The notes beneath the pieces are model-generated. The model ran no database searches, had not been told where the DNA came from, and was given only the letters and a program-made list of their open reading frames with translations. Position numbers and translations under genes: made by a program. This document shows, piece by piece, positions 54,816-64,000 of a stretch of 64,000 nucleotides of DNA. Source of the DNA: Natrarchaeobaculum aegyptiacum (GTDB lineage: Archaea; Halobacteriota; Halobacteria; Halobacteriales; Natrialbaceae); assembly GCF_002156705.1 (NCBI RefSeq), contig NZ_CP019893.1, positions 806,001 to 870,000 on the forward strand. The letters are read 5' to 3'. Every line of letters begins with the position of its first letter. Position 1 is the stretch's first letter.

Positions 54816-54862
54816 ACGGAAGACTTCGTCTTCCGTGACGACGAGACGCCTCCGGCGTCTCG
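54816..54862. terminator. Two adjacent perfect hairpins at the end of the DUF7573-like gene
   Basis: Stem ACGGAAGA/TCTTCCGT (54816-54836) and stem CGAGACGCC/GGCGTCTCG (54842-54862) stand 22 bases beyond the stop of the minus-strand gene at 54885. They could end its transcript. Similar GC-rich hairpin strings also mark IS200/IS605-type element ends in haloarchaea, so a mobile-element relic is an alternative. Confidence 0.4.
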
Positions 54863-60307: not shown

Positions 60308-60622
60308 TCAACGATTCTTGTCGAAGGCCTCCACTGCATCCTTCCCAAGGTCGGTGAAATACATGCGGTAGTACATGTACGAGCCGAGCAGTAAGGCACC
60401 GAGACTCGCTGTGAACCACCCGATGCGAGTATCCGGTACCCACGCTCTCGGCGGCCCAGTTCTGACTGGTTCTTCCGGGAAAATCGACGGGAACCGGGAA
60501 AGCAAAACCGGTTCAACGACTACCATCAGGAACGCGCCGATTAGCACCATCACGACAAACGTCTCACCGAGGAACCGGCGGGTGCTTTCATGCCGGAGAA
60601 GTTCCTTTTGTCGTTCTTTCAT
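60308..60622 (-). CDS. Small two-helix membrane protein
   Basis: The 104-residue protein starts MKERQKELLRHESTRRFLGE. Helix one is FVVMVLIGAFLMVVVEPVLL, helix two WFTASLGALLLGSYMYYRMY, with a periplasm-facing PEEPVRTGPPRAW loop. The family is not recognised. The first codon lies inside a 26-bp duplicated sequence. Confidence 0.65.
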   Translation of the reverse strand: MKERQKELLRHESTRRFLGETFVVMVLIGAFLMVVVEPVLLSRFPSIFPEEPVRTGPPRAWVPDTRIGWFTASLGALLLGSYMYYRMYFTDLGKDAVEAFDKNR

Positions 60623-60676
60623 TCTTGCGTCTGTTCGCTCTCAACTTTTGATTCTTGCGTCTGTTCGCTCTCAACT
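60621..60676. repeat. Two direct copies of a 26-bp sequence, period 30 bp
   Basis: ATTCTTGCGTCTGTTCGCTCTCAACT (26 bases) is present at 60621-60646 and again at 60651-60676, separated by TTTG. The first copy overlaps the start codon of the minus-strand membrane protein; the second abuts the end of the TnpB relic. Confidence 0.9.
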
Positions 60677-60960
60677 CGGGATTGTGACTTCCTCCCCACC
60701 CTGCTCGCTCACGACTGACGCCGTTCGCTCCTCGAGGGTAGCGTGAGACCGGAGGTCTCACGGATCATGCGAACGGGCGCTTCGCGCCCGTGAGCAGATG
60801 GGGCTTCCTGTTTCCACGACGTTGTCAGACTACGTCTGACAGCCCGTGAGATGTAATCTCACGAACGCGCTTTGCAGGAACCGAATCGGTTCCCGCAGGG
60901 AGCGCAGTCTCCGCAGGCGTTCGAAAATCACATAGTGATATTCGAACGATCCATCTACTG
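60677..60960 (-). pseudogene. Decayed TnpB C-terminus with retained hairpin-rich right end
   Basis: On the minus strand RTPAETALPAGTDSVPAKRV (60864-60923) is the typical tail of haloarchaeal IS1341-type TnpB. Its continuation VVETGSP (60800-60820) is in another frame after stops. It is followed by six perfect or near-perfect stems: 60918-60948, 60878-60892, 60845-60863, 60824-60840, 60774-60790 and 60742-60762. The segment ends GGGGAGGAAGTCAC at about 60685-60698. The protein core is missing, but the right end, where the guide-RNA scaffold lies in active elements, is well kept. Confidence 0.75.
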
Positions 60961-61298
60961 GCCGACTGGTTCACCTGACCTGGGTTGGAATCGAGCTAAA
61001 TGGACGCTATACAGATCCGCTGTATTCTGCAGCCAGCTTTCGACAGCCACTGGAGAGATCAACAACTGCTTCAGAAACTACCGAGCCTGCCTCATCGTTT
61101 GTCAGCGACCGCTGAGAGAATACGCGAACGGCTCTAGAACAACTCAGACATAGTCGATCGAAAGCGGCTCGGAGGAAAGTCCTCGTCACACGGGGCTCGG
61201 AGGGGGTAACACGTCGTCACAGCCGCCACCTGACGTAGGCACTCGAGCGGTTTTGGTCTGTCGCTTCGGCTTCGGCCCCACTCACGCTCACCCGCGCG
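60961..61298. other. 338-bp stretch with a short degraded frame
   Basis: A minus-strand frame (61007-61189) ends SLTNDEAGSVVSEAVVDLSS plus a LAAEYSGSV tail and looks like the remains of a real but unidentified gene. ATACAG/CTGTAT (61010-61026) is a small inverted repeat in its end. A GGAGGAAAGTCC string at 61171-61182 is probably chance. Confidence 0.35.
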
Positions 61299-62690
61299 CT
61301 ACTGGTCGCGCCAGCCCTCGAGGGCGCGCAACTTCTCGGCCACCGTCGCAACATCGCTCGGCTCGATCACGCCGTCCTCCGTGACGATTTCGGCCACGCA
61401 GTCTGCGGGCGTGACGTCGAACGTGGGGTTCACCACGTCGACCGCGGCCTCGCCGTCGTAGACCGCCTCGCGGGAGCCGGACTCGAGGTTGACTCCCTCG
61501 CGCGTGGAAATCTTGTCGCTGGCGGCGACGACGGTGACGGGAACCCCCGCGCTATCGGCGGCGATGGCGGCCGCACGGGTGCCGGTCTTGTTCACCACCG
61601 AGCCGTCGGGCTGGATTGCGTCGGCACCGACGACGACGCGGGAGACGGCTTCGCGGCCGAGCACGTGGGCGATCGCGGCGTCGGTGCAGACGGTGATCGG
61701 TGCGTCGACGGTCGATACCGAGGCCAGCCGTTCGGCAACGTCGATCCCCTCCCGCGCCGGGCGGGACTCGGCGACGTAGATCCGCGAGGGGGCCGCTCGC
61801 TCGAGGGCCGCGAGCACGGTTCCGGATCGCGAGAGCGTCAGGACAGTCCCGTCGATGCGGTCGCTCGCGGTTGTGGCGGCCTGCTCGTCGGCGTCGACCG
61901 CGCGGTCGATTGTCTCGAGGGCCACCGTGAGAACGGCCGGTGCGTCGGCGTCGGCCGCCCCCTCTCCGGAACCAGCCTCGGACTCGGCCCTGCCCATCAC
62001 CCGGTTCACGCGATTGCGCAGGACCGCCATCGCGGGCCGGGCCTCGAGCAGTCGTCCAGCCAGTGCGGCCAGTTCCTCGCGTTCGCCCGCCGGATCGGCG
62101 CGGTACTCGGCGCGCTCGCTGACGAGCAGGCCCGCCCGGTCGCGCAGCACCTCGAGTGCGCGGATCGAGAGCCACGCTGCGCCGTGGGTGTCGTCAGCGG
62201 TGATCGACCGAACCGTGGGTGCGACGCGCTCGTAGGCCGTCCAGAGCGCGGGCACCGTCTCGCGGTCGGCCCACGCCTCGTGATCGGGGACGTCGGTCGC
62301 CACGTCCGCGGGGAATCGACTCGCCAAGATCGCAGTCGGCGAGACCCACTCGAAGGCGTCGTGTTCCTCGCTTACCTCTATCTCGCGGGTGTCGACGTCA
62401 ACGAGGTACGGGTGGACGACCCACGAGCGCTCGAGATCGGGGTCGTCGAGCTCGACGGGCCGACCGGACCGGACGACGTCGGCTGGGCTGACCTCGAGGC
62501 CGGTTTCCTCGCGGATCTCGACGAGTAGCTGGTCGTCGGGCTGGCCCTCGGCGAAGCCGGAGACGCCGCCCCACTGGCCGCGGTAGGTGCCGACGGCGTC
62601 GCTCCGGCGGAGCAAGAGGACCTCCCCACGATATCGGAGGAAGGCCGTGACGACGTGATCCGAGTCGCTCGCGTCCGATCGATCGGTCAT
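61299..62690 (-). CDS. NUDIX hydrolase fused to eIF2B/ribose-1,5-bisphosphate isomerase-like domain
   Basis: The 463-residue protein from ATG 62690 (MTDRSDASDSDHVVTAFLRY) has an N-terminal NUDIX domain (about 10-150). Its box keeps the metal acids (QLLVEIREETGLEVSP) though the first glycine-glutamate spacing is unusual. From about residue 160 a second domain follows, with helical AAWLSIRALEVLRDRAGLLV and the eIF2B-alpha/R15P-isomerase core VVVGADAIQPDGSVVNKTGT plus VTVVAASDKIS. Archaeal relatives isomerise ribose-1,5-bisphosphate in nucleotide salvage, or are IF2B-like. The fusion suggests one enzyme that hydrolyses a nucleotide derivative and handles the sugar phosphate. Confidence 0.9.
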   Translation of the reverse strand: MTDRSDASDSDHVVTAFLRYRGEVLLLRRSDAVGTYRGQWGGVSGFAEGQPDDQLLVEIREETGLEVSPADVVRSGRPVELDDPDLERSWVVHPYLVDVDTREIEVSEEHDAFEWVSPTAILASRFPADVATDVPDHEAWADRETVPALWTAYERVAPTVRSITADDTHGAAWLSIRALEVLRDRAGLLVSERAEYRADPAGEREELAALAGRLLEARPAMAVLRNRVNRVMGRAESEAGSGEGAADADAPAVLTVALETIDRAVDADEQAATTASDRIDGTVLTLSRSGTVLAALERAAPSRIYVAESRPAREGIDVAERLASVSTVDAPITVCTDAAIAHVLGREAVSRVVVGADAIQPDGSVVNKTGTRAAAIAADSAGVPVTVVAASDKISTREGVNLESGSREAVYDGEAAVDVVNPTFDVTPADCVAEIVTEDGVIEPSDVATVAEKLRALEGWRDQ

Positions 62691-63004
62691 GGAGTGAGCA
62701 ACGTCGAGGGGTGAGGAATCGCTTTCGGGACCCACTCGCCGGCGATTGCGAACGGCCATCGTGACCGGGACGGTCGGTACCCACACCCGGGCGAGTGGGT
62801 GACCGATACGTGCCCGCCGTCTCACAGACGAGTCAACGAGTGACCGGCAGGAACACAGGCGAGGCCGAGACTGGAGAACCGGCCGTAGGATTCCACCGGG
62901 AGCGACGAGTGAACGGCGGTCGGACCGGATCGTGCCGGGGCCATCGCTCTGACTCGAGGCTGCAGGTAACAACACTGAGTACGATTCGTATCGCAGACAG
63001 GACA
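62691..63004. other. 314-bp divergent promoter region, no gene seen
   Basis: It separates the NUDIX fusion from trkH. No coding frame is convincing. The segment GTAACAACACTGAGTACGAT (62967-62986) may hold the weak promoter of trkH. Confidence 0.4.
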
Positions 63005-64000
63005 ATGAGGATTCGCGTCGAGTGGCGCCGCAGTCTGAATCTCACCGGGTCGGTGCTGAAGTGGCTGGCGCTCCCGCTGTGTTTTCCGCTCGTGTTGGCG
63101 GCCTACTACCGGGAGCCGGTCACTCCCTTTCTGGTGGCAATCCTCGTGACGCTGGTCGTCGGTGTGGCGTTCGAACGGCTCGAGAGCGAGGGGCAGCTGG
63201 GGCCGCGTGAGGCGTTTCTCATGGTCGCACTGACCTGGTTTCTGGTTGCGCTCGTCGGGGCGATTCCGTTCGTCGTCGCCGGCCAGGGGACGATCTCCCA
63301 CCCGGTCAACGCTCTGTTCGAGTCGATGAGTGGGCTCACGACGACGGGGGCGACTGTGCTCCGGGATTTCGACGCCCACGCCCGGTCGATCATGATGTGG
63401 CGTCAGCTCATCCAGTGGCTCGGCGGGCTCGGCATCCTCATCCTCGCGACGGCGATCCTCTCCCAGCTGTCGGTCGGTGGCGCACAGCTCATGGAGAGTG
63501 AGACCCAGTACCAGAACGTCAACCGGCTCACGCCTCACATCGAGGATACCGCACGCCTGATCTTGCGGCTGTACGCCGGACTGACGGCCGTCGCCATCGC
63601 CGTCCTCTACGGGCTCCATCTGCTCGGCCTCGCACCGAACATGACGCTGTTCAACGCGGTCGCACACGCGTTCACCAGCGTCGCGACAGCCGGCTTTTCC
63701 CCCGAACCGCTGAGCCTCGAGGCGTTCGAACCGATCGTCCAGTGGGCGGTCATGCCGTTTATGATCCTCGGTTCGACCAGCTTCGTTCTCATGTACTTCG
63801 TCCTGCAGGGCAACGTCTCCCGGCTGCGCGAGAGCGAAGAATTACACTTCTACCTCGGAAGCATCGTCGTCTTCGCCGCACTGGTGTTTACGGTGCTGAC
63901 GGTGACGGAGAACCCGACCGGGAACGGCATTCACGACACCGTTCGCCAGTCGCTGTTCAATGTGATTTCGATCGTCACCACCACGGGGTACGCTAACGCC
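63005..64000 (+). CDS. trkH: TrkH family potassium uptake protein, 3' end outside window
   Basis: From ATG 63005 the frame is open for 332 codons to the window edge. It starts MRIRVEWRRSLNLTGSVLKW and shows TrkH/KtrB repeats. The pore loops carry the filter glycines in SMSGLTTTGATVL, AFTSVATAGFSPEP and SIVTTTGYA, with WRQLIQWLGGLGILIL after the first. It moves K+ with TrkA-type regulatory partners, which are probably downstream. K+ uptake is central to the salt-in strategy of haloarchaea. Confidence 0.95.
   Translation, partial: MRIRVEWRRSLNLTGSVLKWLALPLCFPLVLAAYYREPVTPFLVAILVTLVVGVAFERLESEGQLGPREAFLMVALTWFLVALVGAIPFVVAGQGTISHPVNALFESMSGLTTTGATVLRDFDAHARSIMMWRQLIQWLGGLGILILATAILSQLSVGGAQLMESETQYQNVNRLTPHIEDTARLILRLYAGLTAVAIAVLYGLHLLGLAPNMTLFNAVAHAFTSVATAGFSPEPLSLEAFEPIVQWAVMPFMILGSTSFVLMYFVLQGNVSRLRESEELHFYLGSIVVFAALVFTVLTVTENPTGNGIHDTVRQSLFNVISIVTTTGYANA

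What the first reader, a model, noticed from the sequence alone, without database searches (positions are those of the whole stretch)
60742..60948. Six consecutive stems retained where TnpB has decayed
Six stems of 6-14 bp, mostly perfect, follow one another within 207 bases. In active elements this region yields the right-end (omega) guide RNA. Retention of structure while the protein is lost raises the possibility of a domesticated RNA or trans-mobilised element.
Basis: partly seen in the sequence, partly recalled or inferred. Interest (0 to 1): 0.5.

Follow-up and report, generated by a model that had tools for sequence, protein, structure and literature searches.

The report
Guide-RNA remnant filled with hairpin inserts
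The six stems are the leftover right end of a TnpB jumping gene in a salt-loving archaeon; only one belongs to its core guide RNA, and the other five come from small paired-hairpin units that turn up again and again at the same spots in such genes.

Summary
The stems are real (fold z about -9 on either strand). They lie on the minus strand, in the right end of an IS200/IS605 (IS1341-type) element: the last ~40 tnpB codons plus the omegaRNA region, ending at 60684 in GTCAC. No left end was found, so this looks like a 5'-truncated remnant; it is missing from the matching place in 8 of 8 relatives examined. The same genome holds an intact 439-aa TnpB with a ~93% identical right end. Stems change less than loops and covary. 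The main correction is anatomical. Relatives without inserts share a 110-122-nt core, and only one of the six stems (60866-60904) belongs to it. The other five belong to three paired-hairpin inserts: half of M1, M2 and M3. Across 87 related tnpB loci the inserts are present or absent as units of mostly 57-60, 46 and about 60 bp, scattered over the tnpB tree no better than random. M1 keeps the tnpB frame in 32 of 33 loci. Models of M1 and M3 match 48 and 41 of 61 haloarchaeal genomes; paired hairpins are ~19-fold denser at both ends of the tnpB elements sampled than in their flanks. They resemble REP dimers and Haloquadratum SMR repeats. Domestication is not supported. What moves the inserts is unresolved.

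The parts
60684..60955 (-). Right-end remnant of an IS200/IS605 (IS1341-type) element; 3' end GTCAC at 60684; homology to relatives fades at about 60943-60955
   Evidence: 93.5% over 260 bp to L013, 92.9% over 225 bp to L014; recurrent right boundary
60828..60947 (-). C-terminal tnpB remnant (TnpB residues ~401-439), stop TGA at 60825-60827
   Evidence: tblastn 77.5% over 40 aa to the intact TnpB of L014 (coordinates converted from L021)
60866..60904 (-). Core omegaRNA hairpin, the only one of the six reported stems found in module-free relatives
   Evidence: its two helices pair in 97.6% and 93.0% of cells over 34 module-free cores;
60918..60948 (-). Second hairpin of insert M1 (first hairpin lost)
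   Evidence: M1 defined in relatives; window matches M1 model R2 only weakly
60820..60865 (-). Insert M2, 46 bp, two hairpins (60845-60863 and 60823-60841)
   Evidence: present/absent in relatives; arms covary
60739..60798 (-). Insert M3, 60 bp, two hairpins (60768-60796 and 60742-60762), inside the right-end stem
   Evidence: model R1 86.5 bits (the window row was in the model); copies elsewhere
60799..60803 (-). 5' arm (CCCCA) of the right-end stem, interrupted by M3
   Evidence: pairs with 60694-60698; helix 6, helix 3
60694..60738 (-). Rest of the right-end stem-loop (inner 5' arm, apical hairpin, 3' arm)
   Evidence: helices 6, 9, 10; helices 3, 4; predicted fold
60664..60683 (-). Position of the presumed guide, flanking DNA just beyond the GTCAC end (inferred)
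   Evidence: boundary at 60684; in the window the only other match is 60634-60653 with 3 mismatches

Best explanation
Window 60684-60955 (minus strand) is the truncated right end of an IS200/IS605 (IS1341-type) transposon of a haloarchaeon. It keeps the last ~40 tnpB codons and a full-length omegaRNA scaffold region. In this transposon lineage the scaffold region has been enlarged by three paired-hairpin elements: M1 in the tnpB tail, M2 between the first core hairpin and the linker, and M3 inside the right-end stem. These are short, REP-like, non-coding repeats. They appear precisely at the same tolerated positions in many tnpB elements, keep the reading frame where coding matters, and leave the core helices able to form. 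The stems persist here because the copy is a fairly recent remnant of a lineage that still has an intact member in the genome, not because the RNA was domesticated. Shown: anatomy, homology, precise presence/absence, covariation, copies elsewhere, enrichment at tnpB ends, absence of the remnant at the matching place in relatives. Inferred: that the region makes or made an omegaRNA, that the units moved by transposition, and that insertion is tolerated rather than selected.
For: Same right end next to an intact 439-aa TnpB in the same genome (L014) and a second remnant, L013. 34 module-free relatives share a 110-122-nt core ending in TCAC, 96.0% of cells paired, 7 of 28 pairs changed on both sides. 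In 94 parsed loci M1, M2 and M3 are separate units. Close pairs show clean units: L196/L207, 97-100% identical within the element, 60 bp; L014/L166, 57, 46 and 60 bp. Presence is random on the TnpB-core tree: M1 27/86 with 24 changes (shuffled mean 23.3), M2 10/87 with 9 (9.7), M3 11/85 with 11 (10.5). M1 net length is a multiple of 3 in 32 of 33 (exception L078, whose TnpB match is in pieces), against 9 of 16 for the best M1-type match in 16 other loci (lengths, less the CG). Covariation in 14 right ends: 91.4% paired, 21 of 66 pairs changed on both sides, 0/500 shuffles; loops 0.491 vs stems 0.228. M3 model matches 41 of 61 genomes, M1 model 48 of 61. Paired hairpins per kb in 134 tnpB loci: left end 0.658, tail 0.629, first kb of CDS 0.022, flank 0.034. 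The remnant is absent beside the conserved 61164 region in 8 of 8 relatives.
Against: No transcript data. The exact insertion point and pre-insertion sequence were not reconstructed, because 60945-61163 matches none of 387 fetched loci. Gain and loss cannot be told apart on the tree, and tail-swapping by recombination between elements could also scatter the modules. Covariation in palindromic DNA need not reflect RNA selection; 20 M3 units outside this right-end type covary too. Unpaired non-loop columns vary less (0.168) than stems. Loci L037-L085 were fetched because they resemble the module-bearing query, which biases module frequencies and hairpin density upward. Candidate mobiliser unsupported: M3-rich genomes G011 and G129 (19 matches each) show no Y1 transposase, and G028 (41) only a fragment. 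In another tnpB family (L017, L135) an M3-type unit brings a stop codon, so insertion is not always tolerated.
Confidence: 0.85

Rival explanations
1. Domesticated orphan omegaRNA: the locus is kept because the RNA works in trans with the intact TnpB or as a regulator.
For: Scaffold helices still form; an intact TnpB with the same right end exists. Of 12 differences between the window and the other remnant L013, 5 fall in 132 stem columns and all 5 keep a standard pair, while 5 fall in 19 loop columns; this may date from before truncation.
Against: The matching place in 8 relatives, all three held congeners included, lacks it; in the window the guide position matches only its own flank and a 3-mismatch neighbour. 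No expression data.
Confidence: 0.06
2. PATE-like non-autonomous element still mobilised in trans, with left and right ends.
For: Two of 12 tnpB-poor copies tested have left-end similarity (L041 95% over 66 bp, L050 90% over 70 bp); the genome has two Y1 transposase matches, one without stops; PATEs are known in Haloquadratum (PMC3119063).
Against: No left-end similarity upstream of this copy (0 hits to 81 stretches of up to 300 bases upstream of tnpB; 0 hits of 60945-61163 to 387 loci). A left end further from tnpB than 300 bases could have been missed.
Confidence: 0.07
3. The modules are ancestral scaffold parts lost repeatedly by precise deletion, or swapped between elements by recombination, rather than inserted.
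For: The tree counts cannot tell gain from loss; elements of one genome can recombine.
Against: Copies outside tnpB, a sequence-unrelated hairpin pair at the M3 site in L229, a reverse-oriented M1-type unit at another tnpB site in L046, and clean unit-length differences between near-identical elements (L196/L207) favour insertion.
Confidence: 0.15

Closest known systems
IS200/IS605 (IS1341-type) TnpB omegaRNA / haloarchaeal sotRNA (PMC12558985; abstract, section 3.3.3 and part 1 of the discussion read)
   Same: RNA from the 3' end of tnpB and the right end, with hairpins and a right-end hairpin; the paper reports 10 omegaRNAs in Halobacterium salinarum.
   Different: Here tnpB is mostly gone and three paired-hairpin units enlarge the scaffold region; no expression evidence.
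REP elements, CGTC-tagged head-to-head dimers, including Rickettsia RPE-4/RPE-6 (PMC3733652; abstract and passages seen)
   Same: M1-type units mostly begin CGTC and end AACG, contain two hairpins, occur in several copies per genome and also inside reading frames; [quoted passage not shown]
   Different: Archaeal; loops mostly 3 nt (paper: 4-5); dense at tnpB ends. A search of that paper's text for 'halo' gave 0 and for 'archaea' 2 occurrences.
SMR-A small mobile repeats of Haloquadratum walsbyi (PMC3119063; passages seen)
   Same: Short transposase-free repeats that prefer IS605-type elements and PATEs and insert in their near-terminal palindromes.
   Different: SMR-A are about 110 bp with terminal inverted repeats; units here are mostly 46-62 bp paired hairpins.
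PATEs, e.g. HqIRS71 (PMC3119063; passages seen)
   Different: No left end found at this copy.

Membership tests
IS200/IS605 (IS1341-type) right end with omegaRNA | tnpB C-terminal coding sequence in the scaffold region | tested here: met
   77.5% over 40 aa
IS200/IS605 (IS1341-type) right end with omegaRNA | conserved right-end boundary, core hairpin and right-end stem | tested here: met
   ends GTCAC at 60684; core pairs covary
IS200/IS605 (IS1341-type) right end with omegaRNA | intact tnpB and left end (complete element) | tested here: not met
   only ~40 codons; no left-end hit
IS200/IS605 (IS1341-type) right end with omegaRNA | processed transcript bound by TnpB | not testable with these tools
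   no RNA data
PATE | both near-terminal palindromic ends without transposase | tested here: not met
   no left end found at this copy; left-end similarity in L041 and L050
CGTC-tagged REP head-to-head dimer (M1-type units) | CGTC tag, two hairpins, outward tags | tested here: met
   A4: CGTC start in 21 of 23 rows, AACG end in 23 of 23; full outward CGTC/GACG symmetry only in some units
CGTC-tagged REP head-to-head dimer (M1-type units) | loops of 4-5 nt | tested here: not met
   loops mostly 3 nt
CGTC-tagged REP head-to-head dimer (M1-type units) | dispersed copies in one genome | tested here: met
   1-35 matches per genome in 48 of 61 genomes; many sit at tnpB elements
SMR-A | about 110 bp with terminal inverted repeats | tested here: not met
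   units are mostly 46-62 bp
SMR-A | preference for IS605-type near-terminal palindromes | tested here: met
   0.66 and 0.63 per kb at tnpB ends vs 0.034 in flanks (sampling bias noted)

The most novel reading that the evidence does not exclude
Haloarchaea carry families of REP-like paired-hairpin miniature mobile elements that specialise on IS200/IS605 transposons. They insert, repeatedly and precisely, into the guide-RNA scaffold, the tnpB tail (in frame) and the left end, so omegaRNA scaffolds evolve by modular accretion of foreign hairpins. Either they hitchhike on or tame TnpB elements, or the extra domains change how TnpB uses its guide RNA.
Probability: 0.6. Interest if true: 0.68.

Novelty: new variant of a known kind. 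Interest (0 to 1): 0.52.

Why it matters
It would show how guide-RNA scaffolds of TnpB, the likely ancestor of Cas12, can grow: by precise insertion of ready-made hairpin pairs at tolerated joints, with natural with/without pairs (for example L014 and L166, 93% identical proteins) that can be assayed directly. It would extend REP-like elements to archaea and offers a lead on what moves CGTC-tagged REPs, which PMC3733652 leaves open.

Tried and rejected
Rfam on the whole window at gathering scores and on 60500-61400 at E up to 1: no match. Pfam on the remnant ORF at E up to 0.1: no match. The identification therefore rests on homology to L014.

Empty site: flanks of the window searched in relatives. 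In 8 relatives (three congeners) similarity to the 61164-61600 side stops at about 61155-61164 and no right end lies beside it; the gene on the other side is in 8 of 125 family genomes, own included. So the remnant is not at this place in those 8, but no exact empty site could be read.

Y1 transposase as the current mobiliser: presence does not track copy number clearly. M1-type matches occur in 48 of 61 genomes; 36 of those 48 and 6 of the 13 without a match have a PF01797 match. Of the M3-rich genomes G011 and G129 have none, and G028 only a 38-codon fragment with a stop. I keep a Y1 enzyme only as a possibility.

Own-genome target preference: of 11 M1-model matches 9 are listed with places; 7 of these lie in a tnpB or its remnant or within about 0.8 kb of a PF01385 match. 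Of 9 M3-model matches 8 are listed and 5 lie in such places, among them the window and the two copies it was modelled with. The unlisted ones were not checked.

Counts: 104 loci had a TnpB match at E up to 1e-20. 94 were parsed (the rest lacked anchors or repeated another). 87 were used for the tree (7 with short TnpB matches dropped); many inner branches are open and two long rows meet, as that call warns. Loci L037-L085 were chosen for similarity to the module-bearing query, so module frequencies are not population frequencies. One M1 (L067) contains an N. In one search, 2 of 15 right ends (L048, L084) were dropped because no 3' end was found, before the 14-row alignment.

Print: eight library searches listed no paper whose title or abstract start describes paired-hairpin inserts in haloarchaeal omegaRNA. 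Only the listed entries were seen. Subscription journals and ISfinder were not searchable.

Full report
What was checked. The six stems exist as described and are far beyond chance: the 207-nt stretch folds with z -8.9 (+) and -9.6 (-), 0 of 200 shuffles as stable. No Rfam family matches.

Where it lies. The window belongs to a 3.93-Mb single-contig genome. The region sits between a 104-aa ORF (60308-60622, minus) and a NUDIX/eIF2B-like gene (61299-63005, minus).

What it is. On the minus strand, 60947-60828 encodes TnpB residues ~401-439 (77.5% over 40 aa). The right end is 92.9% identical over 225 bp to that of an intact 439-aa TnpB at G000:C1:2811063-2812379, and 93.5% over 260 bp to another remnant at 2056968-2057227. 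The right boundary recurs at 60684 (..GTCAC). In six of nine pairs of relatives compared, similarity starts at TTTA, TTAC or TTAG on the left; right ends stop at TTCAC or just past GTCAC where the alignment reaches them. No stretch of up to 300 bases upstream of 81 related tnpB genes matches the sequence upstream of this copy, and 60945-61163 matches none of 387 fetched loci, so I read it as truncated. Of 12 tnpB-poor copies tested, L041 and L050 show left-end similarity; the other ten do not. Beside the conserved region that starts near 61164, none of 8 relatives (three congeners among them) has this right end. A plasmid match in Halostagnicola larsenii is annotated as an RNA-guided endonuclease TnpB family protein.

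Core versus inserts. Thirty-four module-free relatives give a 110-122-nt region from the first core hairpin to TTCAC/GTCAC. Its core hairpin, right-end stem and apical hairpin pair in 96.0% of cells, 7 of 28 pairs change on both sides, and 0 of 500 shuffles reach the paired share or covariation score. Against that core the window has extra sequence in three places. M3 is 60 bp at 60739-60798, inside the right-end stem. M2 is 46 bp at 60820-60865, between the first hairpin and the linker. The second hairpin of M1 is at 60918-60948, in the tnpB tail. Predicted folds keep the core hairpin and an outer right-end stem with the inserts present, though in the minimum-energy fold the first bases of M3 join that stem.

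The inserts come and go. Among 94 parsed tnpB loci 33 carry M1, 16 M2 and 14 an M3-site insert. In the 87 on the tree, 50 have none, 17 M1 only, 5 M2 only, 4 M3 only, 4 M1+M3, 2 M1+M2, 3 all three, and 2 are incomplete. The fewest changes on the TnpB-core tree are 24, 9 and 11; 200 label shuffles give means of 23.3, 9.7 and 10.5, so presence carries no phylogenetic signal. Close pairs differ by a clean unit: L196/L207, with 97-100% identity per 100 columns within the element, by 60 bp; L186/L210 by 57 bp; L014/L166 by 57, 46 and 60 bp plus a 51-bp in-frame hairpin pair deeper in tnpB. L046, L192 and L233 carry an M1-type unit in reverse orientation near base 475 of tnpB. L229 has a hairpin pair of unrelated sequence at the M3 site. 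M1 net lengths are 42, 54, 57, 60, 108 or 111 in 32 of 33 loci, all multiples of three; the exception (59) is L078, whose TnpB match is in pieces. As a rough control, the best M1-type match in each of 16 other loci has a net length divisible by three in 9 (lengths less two). M2, at the very end of the frame, is 46 in 14 of 16 loci. In close pairs M1 and M2 enter after a CG and end in AACG; this is read from the alignments and is an inference about the target.

They are dispersed repeats. M3-type units occur away from this right end in the own genome and in relatives. A model of M3 (R1) finds matches in 41 of 61 genomes, up to 41 in one; a model of M1 (R2) in 48 of 61, up to 35 (stricter filters, so lower bounds; matches at tnpB elements are included). 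In 134 distinct full-length tnpB loci, perfect hairpin pairs occur at 0.658 per kb in the 400 bases before tnpB and 0.629 in bases 1000-1500, against 0.022 in the first 1000 bases and 0.034 in the rest of the loci. Part of these loci were chosen by similarity to the module-bearing query.

Structure is kept. In 14 right ends with M2 and M3, 91.4% of cells pair, 21 of 66 pairs change on both sides, and no shuffle reaches these; slid controls pair in 33-48%. Between the window and the remnant L013 there are 12 differences: 5 in 132 stem columns, all keeping a standard pair, 5 in 19 loop columns, 2 in 80 others. But 20 M3 units outside this right-end type covary as well (98.8% paired, 9 of 20 pairs changed on both sides). 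The signal therefore belongs at least partly to the hairpin element and does not prove an RNA function at this locus.

Mechanism. Best supported: a dead or dying transposon end whose lineage had collected tolerated hairpin inserts. The element itself would work like other IS200/IS605 TnpB elements (PMC12558985, abstract, section 3.3.3 and part 1 of the discussion read): TnpB and a right-end RNA whose guide is the flanking DNA. For the inserts the closest parallels are CGTC-tagged REP dimers, which PMC3733652 says apparently lack a dedicated transposase (abstract and passages), and the SMR-A repeats that favour IS605-type ends (PMC3119063, passages). A Y1 transposase is an attractive mobiliser because IS605 ends are hairpins, but genome-by-genome presence does not support it well.

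Verdict. Observation confirmed; interpretation partly right. The locus alone is an ordinary remnant. The modular, precise and recurrent hairpin insertion into omegaRNA scaffolds that it exposes is the interesting part, and I rate it a new variant of a known kind.

Noticed in passing
window 54816-54862: Another pair of perfect 9-bp hairpins with 3-nt loops, of the same general build; several short ORFs overlap it.
   Followed up: no
window 60634-60683: A stretch of about 30 bp is repeated just beyond the right end, so the presumed guide sequence has a 3-mismatch neighbour copy upstream of the 104-aa ORF.
   Followed up: partly
window 61164-61268: Intergenic sequence conserved in several genomes next to the NUDIX/eIF2B-like gene, with no Rfam match; contains GGAGGAAAGTCC, which from memory resembles an RNase P motif.
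   Followed up: no
window 60308-60622: 104-aa ORF with no Pfam match, found in 8 of 125 family genomes.
   Followed up: no
L014:2561-3880: TnpB of the intact element carries a 51-bp in-frame hairpin pair (17 residues) just after the DRDANA stretch, absent from its 93% identical relative L166.
   Followed up: partly
L041 and L050: Deletion derivatives with left-end similarity and a right end; their junctions appear to fall within hairpin modules, suggesting deletion between modules.
   Followed up: partly
L017:2392-2451: An M3-type unit lies between two pieces of a different tnpB family; in L135 of another genome the same arrangement brings a stop codon into the frame.
   Followed up: partly
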